This document shows, piece by piece, positions 3,919 through 20,443 of a stretch of DNA of 20,443 bases. Both the position numbers and the translations under genes were made by a program. Position 1 is the stretch's first letter; every line of letters begins with the position of its first letter. The notes under the pieces were generated by a model. It ran no database searches. It was not told the DNA's origin and worked only from the letters and a program-made list of their open reading frames with translations. This DNA comes from Neoconidiobolus thromboides FSU 785 (taxonomy: Eukaryota; Entomophthoromycota; Entomophthoromycetes; Entomophthorales; Neoconidiobolaceae), in NCBI GenBank assembly GCA_025603075.1, contig MU626552.1, positions 1 to 20,443 on the forward strand, given 5' to 3'.

Positions 3919-6900
3919 TTAAGAACTATCTTTCAATAAACTAGGAGTAGACCCTTTAGATCCTACTGAATAATTACTGGGTGAAAGAATAGGAGATATG
4001 TTATCTGGGGAATTAATAGGAGATTCCCAGTTTTCTAAAGTAAAATCTGGAATATCTCTATAATCTTTAGATAATAATTGATTAAAATTATTAATAGCAA
4101 CATCTAAATCCATATGATCTGTTAAATTAATTCTTGAAGCTACTGAAAGTGCATGATGTTCATCCATTTGTAAATCCATAATAAAAGAATGATGAGCACC
4201 TGGAGAAAACCCTAATCGTAATGAGAATTCTTTTTCATCCATATCATCTTTTTGACATTCATATAATTCAAATGTTATTTGTGTTAAATAATCTAATTCC
4301 CCAATTTCATGGGCTCTTAAATTCACTGGTAAGCCACCATTTAATACAATATTTAATAAGGTATGAACATGGGATTCTAAACAAAAATAATAAATTCAAT
4401 ATTAAATAACCTAATAATATTATAATATTTAATTAAGTTTACCTTTAGTAAAATAAAGAATAGTAGCTGGTTTTGTAGAATCTCTAATAGTCAATAAATC
4501 CTTTAAAATATTAGTCAATAAATTTCTACTTGTCAACATACCAATAGATAACTTCTCTTCGTTAGTAATGCCATATTCTCTAGGTGCAATCATATCAAAA
4601 AATAACTTAGCACTCCTATACAATTGTTTAAGTGGTTCTAAAGAATATTCATCTTTTTCACAACAAAATACTTCTTCCAAAAAATCTCGATTATGTAATG
4701 CATCATATTTTAAACTATCATATAATTCACATACTTTTCCTGGATCAAATCTAGATTGTTCAACATCACAATATTCTTTAATTAGTTTTTCCCATCGTTC
4801 TTTAAATAATTGTGGGTTATCATTACAACACCATTTTTCTTCTTTTAAGACTGATAAATTCATTTTTTTTAAATTATCTCTCATTATGTCTCTTAATCGA
4901 ATTAACGATTCTTTAATCTTTTCTGCTAATTCTCTAGGAGTTTCTCCATTTGGTGTTTCAAAATAACTTAATAATGGGGAAGTACTATTTAGTTTCATAC
5001 ATTCTTTTAATTCTGCTTTGACTATATCTGTTTGTTCTTTAGCATCATTACTATCATCTAACATTTCTTTTTCAACTTGTATAAAATTTGGATCGATTTC
5101 TTTTAAATTTAAAAAGGGTTTGATAAATGATTCAGCTAAGAGATAATTTTATTATTATTATTATTAAATTATATAATATAAATTACCTGTAGCTACTACT
5201 CTTCTTTCCGAACTTGAATAAACTTTAACATCATCTAATAAATTTTTATTGATAATTGTTAAATCTTTTCGCATATTTAAACCAAGATCAGATGAATGAT
5301 GGGTAGCTGCATGAGTAAACTAAATATAAAAATTAAACATCTTAATTAAATTATATATTATAATTATAGTTACCTCTCCACCCCATTTGATAATAACTTG
5401 CATTGAATCTAAAATCCCATTGATTTTATTAAAACTTGGTTTCACTTGAATTTTAGTACCAGGTAATGAACCTTTCTTTTTCAATATTAAATCAATTTGA
5501 ATTAATTTTGTTTTCTCTTGTCCATCTTCTTTTTCAATTGCCTTTTTAATACTTTCTTTAAATTCTTTAATATTTTCAGGTTTACGAATAATCACTTCTT
5601 CTTTAGAATCATTTAACCAATTAGCAATGAATTTAGAGGTCATCTTAAACTTTGCTTTTTGTTTAGGTGTACGATCTGCATGTCTTAAGACCGAAATAAA
5701 TCCTTTTAATGTCCAAACATTTTCGAAAGTTGGTTCGACATCGGTAACATGAGAAATATATTTCCTTTTTTCTGCATTTTTAAACATCTCCAAAAATAAT
5801 GCCGCTGTCTTTGCATAATATTCTTGATTACCTTTAACAAAGGACCAACCATTAACATCAATAACATAAGATTTTCCATTAGCTCTTAATAAATCCAAAC
5901 CACAAATTGTTTGTCCAAATGTTAAACATACGTTTTTAGCTATCTCTTTTTCTATTTTAGATAACTCAGTTACATACCGCATTTCTTTACCATCCACATT
6001 ACGTCGAACTAAGCCATCCACTACTGGTGATTTTCTTGTTTCTGCATGGGCAAACTCAGGTCCTACAGTATATACTTTGATATCTTCTGAATTATCAACA
6101 TCAATAAATTTTTCATAAATAAAAGAACCATCCATTCTTAATTCATTTTCATTGGGGAAAAATTCACTTGATTTATTTGCTATTTTACGAAATAATTTTC
6201 GAGTACCACCACCTTGAGAAGAATGATAATAAATATTAATATTATGATTTTCTCCATCCACTGGTTTTTCAACAAATGGTTTACTTAATCTTACACCATC
6301 TACTTCAATAGTATCCTGATCGATGACTTTTAATTCATTATTTTTCAACGATTTGATATATTCAATTGCTTTTAATGGCAATTTTTCCATGTATTCTAGA
6401 TCCAAGTTCGGGCCATTGTCTCTAGTAACTGTTAATCTTTGAGGAGTAGGAACACCTACCGCTTCAAGAATACCAAGTACTAATCTTCGATCCCATAATA
6501 CCTTTTGTAAATATAAGTCATTGACACAAAAAGGTTTTCTTAATTCAACATATTTTATAGCTTTATCTAAGGGAAAACCACTCGAAAAAAAAGAAATTAA
6601 AAAATCACATACTGGCCATTTTTCTACCTCTATTTGATATTTAATTTACTTAGTGAGTGAGAGGATGATGAAAAATAGTTGATAAATTACCTTCATCTAA
6701 TATAACTTTGTCACCAAAGATAATAATTTCATAATCAACTTCACTTTCTATAATTCGATTTAAGATATCTCTCATTGGTTTAGATCTTGCTTTAACATCA
6801 CGGGCACAGACACCAATGATAGCTATTTTGAAAAGATATTAGTTACCAGTGAATGAGACTAAAGATGAATAATAATAAAACTCACGTTTCTTTTTACTAA

Positions 6901-9743: not shown

Positions 9744-9942
9744 GTAAGTGACCTAAAAACTGTTAGAAACAAATTTAAACTCTTTAATGAATAGCATGGG
9801 TACTTTTCCTATTAATTAACGACGATGAAAATTATTATCAACAATCAAACTCAAGCCTAACTAAAATTTTAAAACTATATAAATCAATTAAATTTTTCTT
9901 TTAATTTTTTTGATTTTTATTTTTTTGTTTTTATTTATTTAG
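9744..9942 (+). other. Candidate 5'-UTR intron of the kinase gene
   Basis: GTAAGT at 9744-9749 matches the donor used in other genes here. A long T-rich tract ends in TTTATTTAG at 9942, twenty bases before the kinase ATG. The pair would define a 199-nt intron, longer than the window's coding introns, which is common for UTR introns. No transcript evidence exists here, and T-rich tracts before start codons also occur without splicing. Confidence 0.25.
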
Positions 9943-9961
9943 ATTTTTTATAATAATTATA

Positions 9962-11263
9962 ATGATGAGTGACAATTTAACTAGTTTAAATGAATTTCAA
10001 AGTAAAAGATGGAGTGGTTACGATAGATATGCTGTAAGAAGAAGTATCTATCTAAGTGATTCTGATAATAATGAGTTGATCAATGCCTCAAGTACATTTG
10101 ATAGTAGTAATAGTTCTTATTTACCTTTACAATTAGTAGCTTCTCGTTTTCAATTTCCAAACATTAATCCGAATTTAGTGAATAAACAAACTCAATTATC
10201 CACTTTAGAGAACAAACAAAAAAAACGATTCTCTATCAATTTTCTTACTAAACGTAAAAGAATCGATAATCAATTTAAAATTTTACATGAAGTAGCAACT
10301 ACAAAGTTTAAAAATAGTTATGAATTAACCCATACCGAATTGGGTCGTGGTGTAAGTGGTGCTGTATTCTTAGTTAGGCGGATAGTGGATGGGGAATACT
10401 TGGCAGCAAAAGCTTATGTCAAAAAGAGTAATTCTGGTAAATATTCAAAAACAAAGTTTTTAAATAAGATAGCTTCAGAAGTAGTTATGTTGTCTCAACT
10501 TCATCATGAAAATGTAATCAAAACAATTGATGTAGTTTCTCATTATGACCAGATAGTTACCATTATGGAATTTTGTCCTGTTAATTTATTCCGTTTAATC
10601 AAAGAAAAATCATTAAATTTATTTGATTTACAAGAATATTTCAGTCAATTAGGAGCTGGTGTAGCTTATCTACATAATGAATGTGGAATAGCTCATCGTG
10701 ATTTAAAGTTAGAAAATTTGGGTATTGGTCAAGATGGTCAATTAAAAATTTTGGATTTTGGGTCTGCTATTTGTCTTGCTCCTAATTCCCCTTCCATTCC
10801 AGAACATACTTGTCCAGTGTGTCCACCACCTATGATCACCTCATGCCGTTCTTCATCTTCATCAAGTGATTTTTTATTTAAACAAAACAAACGTGTACCT
10901 TCTATAAAAGTTAAAGGTCTTTGTGGTTCAGATCCTTATATTGCCCCAGAGATTTGGGAAACTGTAGCAAATTTAAGACGTGGTACTGGAAATTGCCATT
11001 GTTGTAGACAATGTGGTTATGATCCATTTAAAGCGGATATTTGGTCTTTAGGAGTAATCTATGTTTCTATGCATTCGGGTAAATTTCCTTGGGGTGTAGC
11101 TAAGCCTCATGATGCTGATTTCAATCTATTTAAAAGTAATCGAGTAGGTAGACTATCTAGGTTTAGAGTACCCAATTATTCGTTAAAGATGTTAATGGGC
11201 ATGCTTACACTTTGTCCAATGGAAAGGTTTGATATCGATATGGTGATGTCATATAATAATTAG
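9962..11263 (+). CDS. HAL4/NPR1-type Ser/Thr protein kinase
   Basis: Intronless kinase of 433 residues. The N-terminal 118 residues are Ser/Asn-rich and probably disordered. The kinase domain runs from about 120 to the end: Gly loop GRGVSGAV (128-135), ATP lysine K150, helix-C glutamate E173, HRDLKLEN (245-252), DFG (265-267), APE (328-330), ADIWSLGVIY (358-367) and the late arginine R422. AHRDLKLENL, LKILDFGSA and LCGSDPYIAPE resemble the fungal group containing Hal4/Sat4, Hal5 and Npr1, which controls ion and nutrient transporters. Two inserts are unusual. After DFG there is a Cys/Pro/Ser-rich insert with CPVC (284-287), C295 and a seven-serine run. After APE there is CHCCRQC (345-351). These cysteines could bind metal, which is inference. 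The domain ends soon after R422, so the C-lobe is minimal. The start may be either of two adjacent ATGs. Confidence 0.9.
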   Translation: MMSDNLTSLNEFQSKRWSGYDRYAVRRSIYLSDSDNNELINASSTFDSSNSSYLPLQLVASRFQFPNINPNLVNKQTQLSTLENKQKKRFSINFLTKRKRIDNQFKILHEVATTKFKNSYELTHTELGRGVSGAVFLVRRIVDGEYLAAKAYVKKSNSGKYSKTKFLNKIASEVVMLSQLHHENVIKTIDVVSHYDQIVTIMEFCPVNLFRLIKEKSLNLFDLQEYFSQLGAGVAYLHNECGIAHRDLKLENLGIGQDGQLKILDFGSAICLAPNSPSIPEHTCPVCPPPMITSCRSSSSSSDFLFKQNKRVPSIKVKGLCGSDPYIAPEIWETVANLRRGTGNCHCCRQCGYDPFKADIWSLGVIYVSMHSGKFPWGVAKPHDADFNLFKSNRVGRLSRFRVPNYSLKMLMGMLTLCPMERFDIDMVMSYNN

Positions 11264-12501: not shown

Positions 12502-13514
12502 TCAGCATGCACATCCCTCTACCTTTTCTTCTCCACGATCTAAATCGACTCTAGCTCCATTTTGATTACCTCTACCAAGTCGATTACGTACTGAAGAAGT
12601 AGGTTCTAATGGCATTTTCTTGGCTACAAAGAAATACAATTTAATTACAAAATATGAAAAACTTAATTTAAAACTCATACCTAATTCTGTAAATAATTCT
12701 TGAATATTGACAGATCCTTTTGCTGAAGTTTCAAAAAATATAAGTCCTGCTTCTTGAGCAAATTCTCTAGCCTCATCTGTACTAATGGCTCGACGGGATT
12801 CCAAATCACATTTGTTTCCTGCTAATGCTATCACTATATTTGAATCTGCTTGCTTATGTAATTCCTCAATCCATGCTTTAGCTTTTTCTAAAGAGGCCTA
12901 ACAATCATAAATTAATAAATGCTCATACTGGAATTATATATTATTACAGGCTGGGTAATATCATACACAACTATGGCGCAGTTAGCGTTACGGTAATACA
13001 TAGGCGCTAAAGACTATATAATTATATTAAAAATTATTATTTTAAATTTAATTTCAATCTTTACTCTATATCTTTCTTGGCCAGCGGTATCCCTTTGTTT
13101 AATTTATAATTAAATTTTTTGTTTATAAAAGACACTATTATTTATTACCATATTTCAAACTTGACTGTAGTACCATTTTCAAGTACAAGGGATTGGGTTA
13201 AAAAAGCGGCTAAATTAAATAATTTAATTAAAAAGTAAAGTTAGATTTAATAGTCACTTACCACCAATGGTACTCTCCCTGTAGTCATCAAATTGGTCTT
13301 TAACAAATCTTAATACAAGACTAAAAAGTCGTTTTAATTTTTATTCCATTCTTTACAAACTATAAATTCTACCTTGATTTACCAACTGCAGACTCACCTA
13401 ATGAAAATATTTATAAGTAACAAAATCATTAACAAAAGCACTAAGCTTACCTAGTAATACCAATTTAAATTGAAAGGTATCATTAGATACCAATGAGTTA
13501 CGTTTTGAAGACAT
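12502..13514 (-). CDS. ypt5: Rab5-type small GTPase (Ypt5), 8 exons
   Basis: Early-endosome Rab of 213 residues, the GTP switch for endocytic fusion and sorting. Exons are 13514-13451, 13397-13373, 13320-13262, 13209-13149, 13092-13065, 13013-12948, 12897-12681 and 12623-12502; the seven introns are 50-57 nt, GT-AG, and all phases close. Motifs are the P loop GESAVGKS (22-29), switch I YRESTIGAAF with T47, [20 protein letters not shown] (70-89, Q75), the guanine motif NKCD and ETSAK. STIGAAFLTQ and the [11 protein letters not shown] block are diagnostic of Rab5. The C-terminus EGCAC is a CXC signal for double geranylgeranylation. The P loop and the DTAGQERYR switch II motif each sit on tiny exons of 25 and 28 nt. 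All catalytic residues are present, so the protein should be active. Confidence 0.95.
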
Positions 13515-14898: not shown

Positions 14899-15779
14899 TA
14901 ATCAGAATAATCCATTCCTTGTTCATCAAATTGTTCATTAGGATCACGAGACTGTTCGAAGTCATCTTCGTAAAATGTTTCACCTTCTTCTTCAAGACCT
15001 CCTTCATTAGAATCTTCAAAATTTTCTTCGATAATTTGTGGTTCTGGTTTTTGACCATTACCTGGTGCATACGATGACATCTCTTTTTCATATCTTATTT
15101 TGTCTTGATCATACATACGATAATATTTCTATCATATTTTTAGCTTTGTCTTTATACGTAAATTCCAGTTGTTACCTCTTTTTCTGAATTATCAAGCTCT
15201 TTCCAGCGTGCTCCAAGTAATTTAGTAAGATCACTTAAAGTAGCATCTTGATTTTCTTCCCTCATTTTTGCTCTTTCGAGCTGACAAAACATAAAAAATG
15301 CGTTAGCTGGTCTTTTTGGTGCATTAGGATCTTTTTCAGGTCTTCTTTTTTCAACTACTACTTCTTCCTATAATTATGAATAACAGGTTTTCGAAACATA
15401 ATATTTATTACGTCAGATGATATATCACTGTCAACTGGTGAACCTTCGCGCATTTCTGTAAGCTTTTCAAGTAGAATACTAAATTTTTAGTTATTATTTT
15501 ATAACTTTTTTCTTTAAATTTGTACCTCTTTTCAAATTTTAACTCTTTTAGTCGACGATCGTATTTTGCCATCTTTTTGGCTAAGTCTTCAGCTTCCTAT
15601 TTTTGGCTTAATTTTAGTTTACTAAGTTACTATTGACTTACAGTTTCTGCATCTCGTACTTGTACTTTTAAAGATTTATACTTTCTTTTATATTTTGCAT
15701 CATTTTTGTCTATCTATTTTTAATATCAATTTCAAACTAATTATAATACAAAATTACCCTCCATTACTCTTGATGCCAT
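14898..15779 (-). CDS. nhp10: HMG-box protein, Nhp10-like (INO80 subunit), 6 exons
   Basis: Predicted chromatin protein of 216 residues. Exons are 15779-15758, 15709-15642, 15596-15526, 15478-15412, 15367-15176 and 15128-14898; introns are only 44-48 nt, GT-AG, and all phases close. Residues about 8-70 are Lys/Glu-rich and heptad-like (YKRKYKSLKVQVRDAE, LAKKMAKYDRRLKELKFEKR), likely a coiled coil. The HMG box spans about 91-160: PNAPKRPANAFFMFCQLERA, LLGARWKELDNSEKE and YYRMYDQDKIRYEKEM. The tail (about 168-216) is strongly acidic and ends in DYSD. A coiled coil followed by a single HMG box with the FCQLERAKMREEN style of helix 1 resembles fungal Nhp10, which binds DNA as part of the INO80 remodeler. 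A generic HMGB-like protein is the alternative. The HMG-box call is firm; the Nhp10 call is moderate. Confidence 0.88.
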
Positions 15780-16753: not shown

Positions 16754-18164
16754 TTATTTCTGGTCATCATTAGTAAGTGAATAATTCTCACTATTTCTTT
16801 TGATGATTTCTACAACTGGACCAAGTAAGCGTACAAATGCTTTTTTACCAAGAGTGGCGCATTTTAGTCGACCACGAGCACTAACTGTGGCCTTTCTTGG
16901 TTCCTCATTCAGTAGTGCAAGTTCTAAATATTATAAAAAATAATCAAAAATAATTAAAAATAACGATTTAAAAATTACCTCCAAAATAGTCTCCCTTTTT
17001 CAATGAAGGTAAGCTATGTGCGACACCATTTTCATCTGTTTTAGTTATTGAGGCTTCCCCAGATTCGATAATATAAAAGTTTTCGCCAGTATCCCCTTGT
17101 TTAAGTACAATTTCTCCATCATTATAAATAATTGATTCTAAAGCATCAGCAACCTTATGCCTTTCATAGGGCTCAAGGTTAGTCAACAAAGGAACCTCTT
17201 CAAGGAAGGATTCATACATGCGACGTTTTCTAGAAGTTTGTTCCATCAAAATTTTTCTAAAAGTTACTCTATCCAATGCCCAAAGTACAGCATCCTCTGT
17301 ACAAGTTACAGTTGCTGCACGTGGTGCATTATACATCAATGCTAATTCTCCAAAACTACCTCCTGCGCTATAAGAAAGCACTTTAACTTTACCACCATCT
17401 TTTTCAACATAAACATCAAATGACCCGCTTTCTACCACATAAAAATAATCTCCTACCCCTCCCTGTACAATAATATCTTCCCCTCTAAAAACTCGCTTTT
17501 CTGACATGGCATCGATAACGTCTTTGTGTTGTTCTTCATCAAGGTTTTTAAATAAAAAGTTATTAGATATAGAACTTTCAATCCGACTACGTTGTTCTGG
17601 GTTTTTATCTACATAGATTTTAACAAATTCACCATCTTTTGTTGGTGCCATGGATTCAGCACTGATGGAGGTACGTCTGCCCCTATTATAAGATGGTGGC
17701 TCAAACGGAACATCATCATCATCACTTGAAGATAACAGAAAACTACTATCTGAAGCAGCATCTGAAATTATTTCATTTCCAGATAAATATACATCACTTC
17801 CGTCTGTGGACTCTAAGGTATTAATTGGCTCTTCAGCTGAGAAATCAACTGGGAAATCAGCTGGAAGAGATATCAAATCTTTATTTTCATTAATAGAACG
17901 TTTTTGTATTTCGTTATTGTTTTCAGCTCTAGTGACTAAAATAAAAGGTAAATTGTATTATTTAAACGATAATAAAAATAAGATACCTAAATTTAAAAGA
18001 TTTAAACGCTGTTCAATTAACTTTTGATTAAAATAATCAGCACAGTATTGATATATATCTTTTGGGTTATCTTTGGTAAGTTCCGCCTTTAATTTTTCAC
18101 ATAGAGTTTCTACAGAAGGAAAAAGCTCCTCGATAGAATAGTTTAAAGAAGAGTTATTGGACAT
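16754..18164 (-). CDS. bcy1: cAMP-dependent protein kinase regulatory subunit, 3 exons
   Basis: PKA regulatory subunit of 434 residues, which inhibits the catalytic subunit until cAMP binds. Exons are 18164-17987, 17935-16979 and 16923-16754; introns are 51 and 55 nt, GT-AG, and all phases close. Residues 1-58 form the docking/dimerisation region ([32 protein letters not shown]). An acidic linker ([12 protein letters not shown]) precedes the inhibitor site RRTSIS (146-151), a phosphorylatable RRxS, so this is an RII-like substrate inhibitor. Two cyclic nucleotide-binding domains follow, each with an intact phosphate-binding cassette: [16 protein letters not shown] (254-269, E256 and R265) and [16 protein letters not shown] (about 377-392, E379 and R388). 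The second intron splits the second cassette between Gly and Glu. ATTGG cores about 220-255 bases upstream may be promoter elements. Both sites should bind cAMP. Confidence 0.96.
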
Positions 18165-19484: not shown

Positions 19485-20443
19485 TTAAACGAACTTCTTC
19501 AACCATTTAGTAACCATTTTCGCCATAAGGGAGGAATGATCTAAAACTCTTATTACTTGTTGCCATTAAAGAACAAGTAATAACTTACCTAATATAAAAG
19601 CATGGGGGATTTGTTGGTTACAAAGGAGGATATTAGCTAAATAAAAATTATTAAATTATACCGAAGTATACAATACAAATCTTTACCATTAGGAATTAAT
19701 TCCTTCATATTAACATAATGCTTTTCAGGTGCCCAGCCATCATTTTTGCCGTAGTAGATTGTTAACTTGTTCTCATTTTTAATATAAAATTCTTCATTTA
19801 AATCAGAGATTTGGATCATTTCCTCAAATCCTGTCTGTAAACAATTTTGGGCATTTTTATGTGTACTAAAAATAATAGAAGTTAAGATTAATAATATAAT
19901 ATATGACATAATATATATCAAACAAAAGGATATAATGCTACATTATCTACGGTAATTGATGTATATCTATCGCTATGCCATGTAAAAAGTTTTACAGTTA
20001 AAAATTTAACCCAGCGTGGCAATAGACTTATCAAAAATATAATCCACATCGCTATCATCATCGGGTATTTTAAAAATAAAAACTAGCAATGATATAGAAT
20101 GATTTGCTTAAAAAAATAAATGTTCCTTACACTACACATTTTAATACCATTAGGTGTATTTCTGATATCACATAAAGCAGGGAACAAGTTGATTATATGC
20201 TTAATATTATAATCTGGCCTTTGTTTTAAAACCTTCATATATATATTAAAGTATAAAAAATGAATAATTCTATAGACTTACTTGTTCAGTTAACCAGCCA
20301 CCCATAGAATGGGACATAAAAAAATAATCAGTATCCTTTGGGTAGCTTTCAACTATCTTATCTAAACAATGAAGTTTGAACTCCACTTGGTCATTTAAAC
20401 TATATATACTTTCTGAGACCAGGTTTAAACTTTGACTTGAGCT
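19485..20443 (-). CDS. LDAH: Lipid-droplet-associated hydrolase (LDAH), C-terminal part, 6 exons visible
   Basis: Alpha/beta hydrolase; 231 C-terminal residues are visible and the N-terminus lies beyond the right edge. Exons are 20443-20282, 20232-20131, 20082-19934, 19865-19687, 19636-19589 and 19540-19485. The nucleophile elbow is SHSMGG, where the usual motif is GHSxG, so the first glycine is serine. LFPALCDIRNTPNG matches the LDAH block after the nucleophile. Exon 3 encodes a hydrophobic stretch (MMIAMWIIFLISLLP), as in the membrane hairpin that targets LDAH to lipid droplets. The acid is probably the aspartate of YYGKNDGWAP and the histidine that of QIPHAFIL. The last residues, SSLMAKMVTKWLKKF, fit the family end. 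Four introns are GT-AG, of 48-50 nt; the third looks U12-type (see next feature). Esterase or lipase activity on neutral lipids or sterol esters is inferred from the family. Confidence 0.88.
19866..19933 (-). other. Candidate U12-type (minor spliceosome) intron in LDAH
   Basis: The intron begins ATATCCTTTT at 19933, a perfect match to the U12 donor consensus (A/G)TATCCTTT. It contains TCTTAAC, matching the core of the TTCCTTAAC branch site. It ends in TTTTTAG (19866) about 16 nt later, or in TAC (19863) about 19 nt later. Both ends join exon 3 to exon 4 in phase 2, giving VAFTHKNAQNCLQ or VALHKNAQNCLQ. Every GT in exon 3 near this place is at phase 0 and cannot use the 19866 acceptor. A U2 alternative (GTTTGA at 19923 to CAG at 19835) is open but removes NAQNCLQ. 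Confidence 0.6.

What the first reader, a model, noticed from the sequence alone, without database searches (positions are those of the whole stretch)
19863..19933. Likely U12-type AT-AG or AT-AC intron in the LDAH gene
Exon 3 and exon 4 can be joined with the family-like segment NAQNCLQTGFEEM kept only from an ATATCCTTTT donor. A CTTAAC branch core lies 16-19 nt before an AG or AC end, and both ends preserve phase. All nearby GT donors have the wrong phase for that acceptor. Most ascomycetes and basidiomycetes have lost the minor spliceosome, while some early-diverging fungi keep it, so this would place the organism and imply U11/U12 snRNAs elsewhere in its genome. Caution: other perfect TATCCTTT donors occur in this window by chance (for example 20331 on the plus strand), so the motif alone is not proof.
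Basis: partly seen in the sequence, partly recalled or inferred. Interest (0 to 1): 0.75.

Follow-up and report, generated by a model that had tools for sequence, protein, structure and literature searches.

The report
AT-AC minor-spliceosome intron in a fungus
A gene of the early-diverging fungus Neoconidiobolus thromboides carries a rare AT-AC intron of the kind cut out by the minor spliceosome, and the genome holds the matching machinery, one RNA of which looks oddly altered where it should read the start of the intron.

Summary
Confirmed and extended. The window is a whole contig of Neoconidiobolus thromboides FSU 785 (Entomophthorales). The LDAH-like gene (minus strand) needs a 71-nt intron at 19933-19863: donor ATATCCTTTT, branch TCTTAAC, end TAC. 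No GT-AG pair near the joint (0 of 8) keeps the segment that 9 of 9 aligned relatives have; the AT-AC product has the family's spacing (8 of 9 exactly). The deposited model (GT 19941/AG 19835) alone lacks 12 residues. Genome-wide the donor+branch pattern occurs 20 times against 1 for its reversed control (3.6 expected); 7 of the 20, LDAH included, have homology or a deposited protein across the AT-AC junction. AT-AC is preferred to AT-AG. Minor introns of fungi are known (Rhizophagus, Basidiobolus, Rhizopus, Phycomyces): a new member of a known kind. Unexpected: the only U6atac found pairs with U4atac through three helices, with compensatory changes, yet has GUUGA for the 5'-splice-site box AAGGA and GGC for the AGC triad, although donors stay canonical.

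The parts
19863..19933 (-). U12-type AT-AC intron, 71 nt (68 nt if the AG at 19866 is used)
   Evidence: frame, family spacing and genome-wide pattern
19924..19933 (-). 5' splice site ATATCCTTTT
   Evidence: predicted U11 5' end pairing -6.2 kcal/mol
19881..19887 (-). branch element TCTTAAC, branch A 19882 or 19883
   Evidence: same element in the PP5-like sister intron L065; predicted U12 pairing -5.6 kcal/mol
19863..19864 (-). 3' splice site AC (preferred)
19866..19867 (-). alternative 3' splice site AG (AT-AG reading)
   Evidence: in frame; product one residue longer
20282..20443 (-). LDAH-like exon, 5' end beyond the contig
20131..20232 (-). LDAH-like exon
19934..20082 (-). LDAH-like exon before the AT-AC intron
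19687..19862 (-). LDAH-like exon after the AT-AC intron
19589..19636 (-). LDAH-like exon
19485..19540 (-). LDAH-like last exon with TAA
   Evidence: sequence read by eye against deposited protein P0001
19835..19941 (-). GT-AG intron implied by the deposited model, judged wrong
   Evidence: P0001 reads VDN-TGFEEM; 12-residue gap

Best explanation
The interval is a genuine U12-type (minor) AT-AC intron of 71 nt in an LDAH-family gene of Neoconidiobolus thromboides. Shown by sequence: donor, branch element, AC end, kept frame, kept family spacing, and minor snRNAs in the genome. Inferred: U11 pairs with the donor and U12 with the branch site, the tri-snRNP of U4atac/U6atac and U5 joins, U4atac leaves, and the RNA is joined between 19934 and 19862. 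AC rather than AG end: about 0.8.
For: No nearby in-frame GT-AG pair keeps the conserved segment. Pfam 144.1 bits against 130.8, 128.8 and 128.7 for three GT models; nine shuffles of the 12 residues give 136.5-142.7. 9 of 9 aligned relatives have residues in all 12 columns, 8 of 9 with the same 19-residue spacing. Pattern 20 against 1 control. Same architecture in sister introns, two with gap-free homology across the junction, one in a deposited protein. All four minor snRNAs and 35K.
Against: No transcript evidence; the deposited LDAH model uses GT-AG. U12 and U4atac score below the Rfam cut-off; U6atac just above and altered in its donor-pairing box. Eight of the 20 pattern matches gave no convincing join. 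Two in-frame GT-AG pairs with a far, poor donor also keep the segment.
Confidence: 0.94

Rival explanations
1. An ordinary U2-type GT-AG intron at 19941-19835, as in the deposited model, gives a protein 12 residues shorter.
For: Deposited protein P0001 has this junction; TTACAG is a good acceptor and the frame is open.
Against: 15 bits lower in Pfam; 12-residue gap seen in none of 9 aligned relatives; donor GTAGCA is poor beside GTAAGT, GTAAGG and GTAAAG of the same gene.
Confidence: 0.03
2. Same minor intron but ending at the AG (AT-AG, 68 nt).
For: AG lies first after the branch, 15 nt away, in frame; Pfam 144.0 bits.
Against: One residue longer than the AT-AC product, a spacing that 0 of 9 relatives show; sister introns join at TAC. 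The confidence given is within the best explanation's, as a sub-case.
Confidence: 0.2
3. A chance motif in a decayed or mis-sequenced gene.
For: AT-rich genome (36.2% A, 36.7% T in a 200-kb sample), so such words are common; contig end.
Against: 20 against 1 control; other splice sites and frames of the gene are intact; sister introns share the architecture.
Confidence: 0.02

Closest known systems
U12-type AT-AC introns (PMC10639083 and PMC2846911, passages read)
   Same: ATATCCTT donor, CTTAAC branch element close to the 3' end, AC end, minor snRNAs in the genome.
   Different: Strict matches here are AT-AC with a long T-run after ATATCC; no GT-AG minor intron was recognised by eye among the four strict GTATCC matches; relaxed donors not searched.
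Minor introns of Basidiobolus meristosporus and Rhizophagus irregularis (PMC10639083, passages)
   Same: Early-diverging fungi with minor introns; all four minor snRNAs are reported there for Rhizophagus.
   Different: N. thromboides is not named in that main text by the terms searched (Conidiobolus, Entomophthor-: 0); its supplement was not readable.
U6atac snRNA, RF00619
   Same: 33.6 bits, cut-off 33; GUGUUG start, GAGAGA, U4atac-pairing stretches, T-run end.
   Different: GUUGA for AAGGA and UUGGCA for UUAGCA.

Membership tests
U12-type AT-AC intron | 5' splice site ATATCCTT | tested here: met
   ATATCCTTTT at 19933
U12-type AT-AC intron | branch element like TCCTTAAC near the 3' end | tested here: met
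   TCTTAAC, one base off, 18 nt before the end (AC) or 15 nt (AG)
U12-type AT-AC intron | AC end | tested here: inconclusive
   AC preferred by family spacing and sister introns; AG possible
U12-type AT-AC intron | minor snRNAs in the genome | tested here: met
   U11, U12, U4atac, U6atac all at E below 0.01, the criterion quoted in PMC10639083
U12-type AT-AC intron | minor-spliceosome proteins | tested here: met
   35K: best solved relative is 35K, 105.7 bits, against 64.6 for U1-70K. 48K zinc finger not found
U12-type AT-AC intron | spliced in RNA by the minor spliceosome | not testable with these tools
   no reads held; one other AT-AC junction is in a deposited protein
U6atac (RF00619) | score over the curated cut-off | tested here: met
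   33.6 against 33 bits
U6atac (RF00619) | base pairing with U4atac | tested here: met
   13, 7 and 10 bp, colinear
[quoted passage not shown]
   GUUGA and GGC; predicted duplex -2.7 against -7.9 kcal/mol for the consensus. So it is filed as a probable, divergent U6atac

The most novel reading that the evidence does not exclude
The minor spliceosome of N. thromboides works with a U6atac that no longer reads the 5' splice site by the usual AAGGA helix, and carries GGC for the AGC triad, while donors stay ATATCCTTTT(T). Donor choice would rest on U11, U6atac would engage by a short or shifted pairing, and the minor introns would be nearly all AT-AC.
Probability: 0.35. Interest if true: 0.78.

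Novelty: new member of a known kind. Interest (0 to 1): 0.5.

Why it matters
It points to a working minor spliceosome in Entomophthorales and shows how GT-AG gene calling mis-splices such a gene (the deposited LDAH lacks 12 residues). [quoted passage not shown]

Tried and rejected
GT-AG models of the interval: 8 of 8 near ones lose the conserved segment; 2 of 13 over all of exon 3 keep it, from a poor far donor that deletes most of the exon. Donors that the altered U6atac would prefer (ATATCAAC): 2 of 50 ATATC...TCCTTAAC matches, total 50 against 47 control, so not enriched. A second U6atac copy: none by DNA search; of the 18 RF00619 hits I read six in alignment, and five of these (L008, L009, L010, L013, L014; 18.6-23.8 bits) share a sequence that looks like a repeat. 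PF05253 (48K) hit: antisense to a 682-aa frame. The best hit to 35K, on C48, lies in a frame that reads by eye as a cyclophilin with an RRM, not 35K. A check of the 65K-like exon against solved structures found nothing. Rows dropped: one search gave 15 proteins, of which P0001-P0010 were aligned and P0011-P0015 were not; one of 21 matches (C332) was not fetched. Paper searches: (capped listings; minor spliceosome or U12-type, with Conidiobolus) hold 0 papers. Passages only were read, of PMC10639083, PMC2846911 and PMC10599564.

Full report
WHAT THE WINDOW IS. The window is the whole of contig C295 (20,443 b) of a 23.1-Mb, 392-contig assembly. The spliced LDAH-like protein finds K502DRAFT_368491 of Neoconidiobolus thromboides FSU 785, on a contig of 20,443 b; this is an entomophthoralean fungus.

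THE OBSERVATION. On the minus strand the gene (PF10230) has ordinary introns with donors GTAAGT, GTAAGG and GTAAAG. Between the exon ending in SITVDN(VA) and the exon with NAQNCLQTGFEEM, 8 of 8 in-frame GT-AG pairs with donors from 20000 on lose the latter segment. Over all of exon 3, 2 of 13 GT-AG and 4 of 10 GC-AG pairs keep it; the GT ones start at 20047 (GTGGATTA) and would delete most of exon 3. The AT donor at 19933 with the AC at 19863 (71 nt) or the AG at 19866 (68 nt) keeps frame and segment. Pfam: AT-AC 144.1, AT-AG 144.0, three GT models 130.8, 128.8 and 128.7 bits. Nine hand shuffles of the 12 residues score 136.5-142.7, so most of the gain is length and a smaller part is sequence.

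Of the 15 proteins that a profile search returned, ten (P0001-P0010) were aligned with the AT-AC product. P0001 is the deposited model of this very gene. The other nine all have residues in each of the 12 columns, and 8 of 9 have the same 19 residues between the IT motif and the conserved E-M (one has 18); P0001 has 7 there. The AT-AG product would have 20.

GENOME-WIDE TEST. TATCCTTN{18,48}CCTTAAC occurs 21 times against 11 for the reversed pattern (11.3 expected). ATATCCTTTTN{14,44}CTTAAC occurs 20 times against 1 (3.6 expected). All 20 were read with flanks. Seven have homology or a deposited protein across the junction: LDAH; a PP5-like phosphatase and an HBS1-like GTPase, both without a gap at the junction against solved proteins; a PPME1-like protein (weak, 29.8 bits); an MCM OB domain (45.1 bits) and a cofilin-like domain (27.7 bits); and a protein that I take for NR2C2AP-like (name recalled), whose deposited form K502DRAFT_320238 is identical to the AT-AC product across the junction. 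Four more join open frames without such a test: L047 (Rab2-like by recall), L049, L057 (an IPK domain starts at residue 92, the junction being residue 91) and L066. L044 would need a micro-exon. Eight (L052, L062, L063, L064, L067, L068, L069, L070) gave no convincing join.

The ten sister introns read out are 61-74 nt, begin ATATCCTTTTT, have CCTTAAC or TCTTAAC, and join at TAC 9-18 nt after it; for some an in-frame AG is also open. LDAH has 18. In one search the base before TATCC is A in 11, G in 4, T in 3 and C in 2 of the 20 fetched matches. None of the four G cases read as a coding join to my eye; they were not tested further, and relaxed donors were not searched.

MACHINERY. U11 at C14:11757-11880 minus (65.4 bits, cut-off 39). 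U12 at C12:151736-151892 plus (34.7, cut-off 53), with GUAAGGA opposite the branch element. U4atac at C25:43214-43362 minus (40.9, cut-off 53). U6atac at C1:41699-41843 plus (33.6, cut-off 33). In the 14 control genomes these families reach no match over the cut-off, though weak ones ring in 3, 8, 1 and 1 of them. U4atac and U6atac share three colinear helices: U6atac 38-50 with U4atac 8-20 (13 bp, -20.9 kcal/mol; best of 2000 random genomic 80-mers against U4atac 1-70: -16.3), 24-30 with 63-69 (7 bp) and 1-10 with 76-85 (10 bp). Against the Rfam consensus the 7-bp helix has two pairs changed on both sides (G-C to A-U, A-U to G-C), read by eye. Human 35K finds exons at C14 (read in L059) that match solved 35K with 105.7 bits and U1-70K with 64.6. 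Human 65K finds an exon at C80 (E 1.1e-10, residues 149-263, read in L061); that part of my query was not verified and no solved structure covers it. The 48K zinc finger was not found; 31K was not searched.

THE ODD U6ATAC. The consensus reads AAGGAGAGA...UUAGCA; here GUUGAGAGA...UUGGCA. Predicted pairing with AUAUCCUUUUUUU falls from -7.9 to -2.7 kcal/mol, whereas U11 keeps -6.1 and U12 keeps -7.3 and -5.6 with two branch words. A donor that fits the altered box (AUAUCAAC, -7.3) is not enriched (2 of 50). The locus is single by DNA search. Since it co-varies with the only U4atac found, I take it for the working gene; a copy outside the assembly or a sequence error is not excluded. That AAGGA pairing is needed in human cells, and that the AGC triad is near-universal, are recalled.

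MECHANISM. Shown by sequence: splice elements, frame, snRNA genes, 35K. Inferred: recognition by U11 and U12, catalysis with U6atac, U12 and U5, removal of 19933-19863. What the enzyme does in the fungus was not studied.

NOVELTY. Minor introns of fungi are in print: 205 in Rhizophagus and 249 in Basidiobolus (PMC10639083, passages), a few in Rhizopus and Phycomyces (PMC2846911, passages). In the held library no paper holds both minor spliceosome or U12-type and Conidiobolus; supplements were not readable. So: a new member of a known kind, with an unusual U6atac as the part worth following.

Noticed in passing
L007:1501-1645 (G000:C1:41699-41843): Single U6atac candidate with GUUGA for AAGGA and GGC for the AGC triad, co-varying with U4atac.
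   Followed up: partly
window 19835-19941, minus: Deposited protein K502DRAFT_368491 is spliced GT-AG here and lacks 12 residues present in the nine aligned relatives; likely an annotation error.
   Followed up: yes
L008:1460-1660; L009, L010, L013, L014: A repeated element of about 100 b (L008 shows ends like ggggatgtttt / aaaatacatcccc) that weakly resembles U6atac; may be a small inverted-repeat transposon.
   Followed up: no
window 16968-17957, minus: cAMP-dependent protein kinase regulatory subunit (233.6 bits to a solved type II-beta subunit).
   Followed up: partly
window 5320-6838 minus; 12502-12897 minus; 15152-15367 minus; 9914-11263 plus: Frames that look, by eye, like a VIP1/PPIP5K kinase, a Rab GTPase, an HMG-box protein and a protein kinase.
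   Followed up: no
L061 from about 2840: A long run of N in the assembly inside a tandem-repeat frame (YTSSYSAPA-like units) beside the 65K-like exon.
   Followed up: no
L056:150-760, minus: Deposited protein K502DRAFT_320238 already uses an AT-AC junction, so the annotation of this genome holds at least one such intron.
   Followed up: yes
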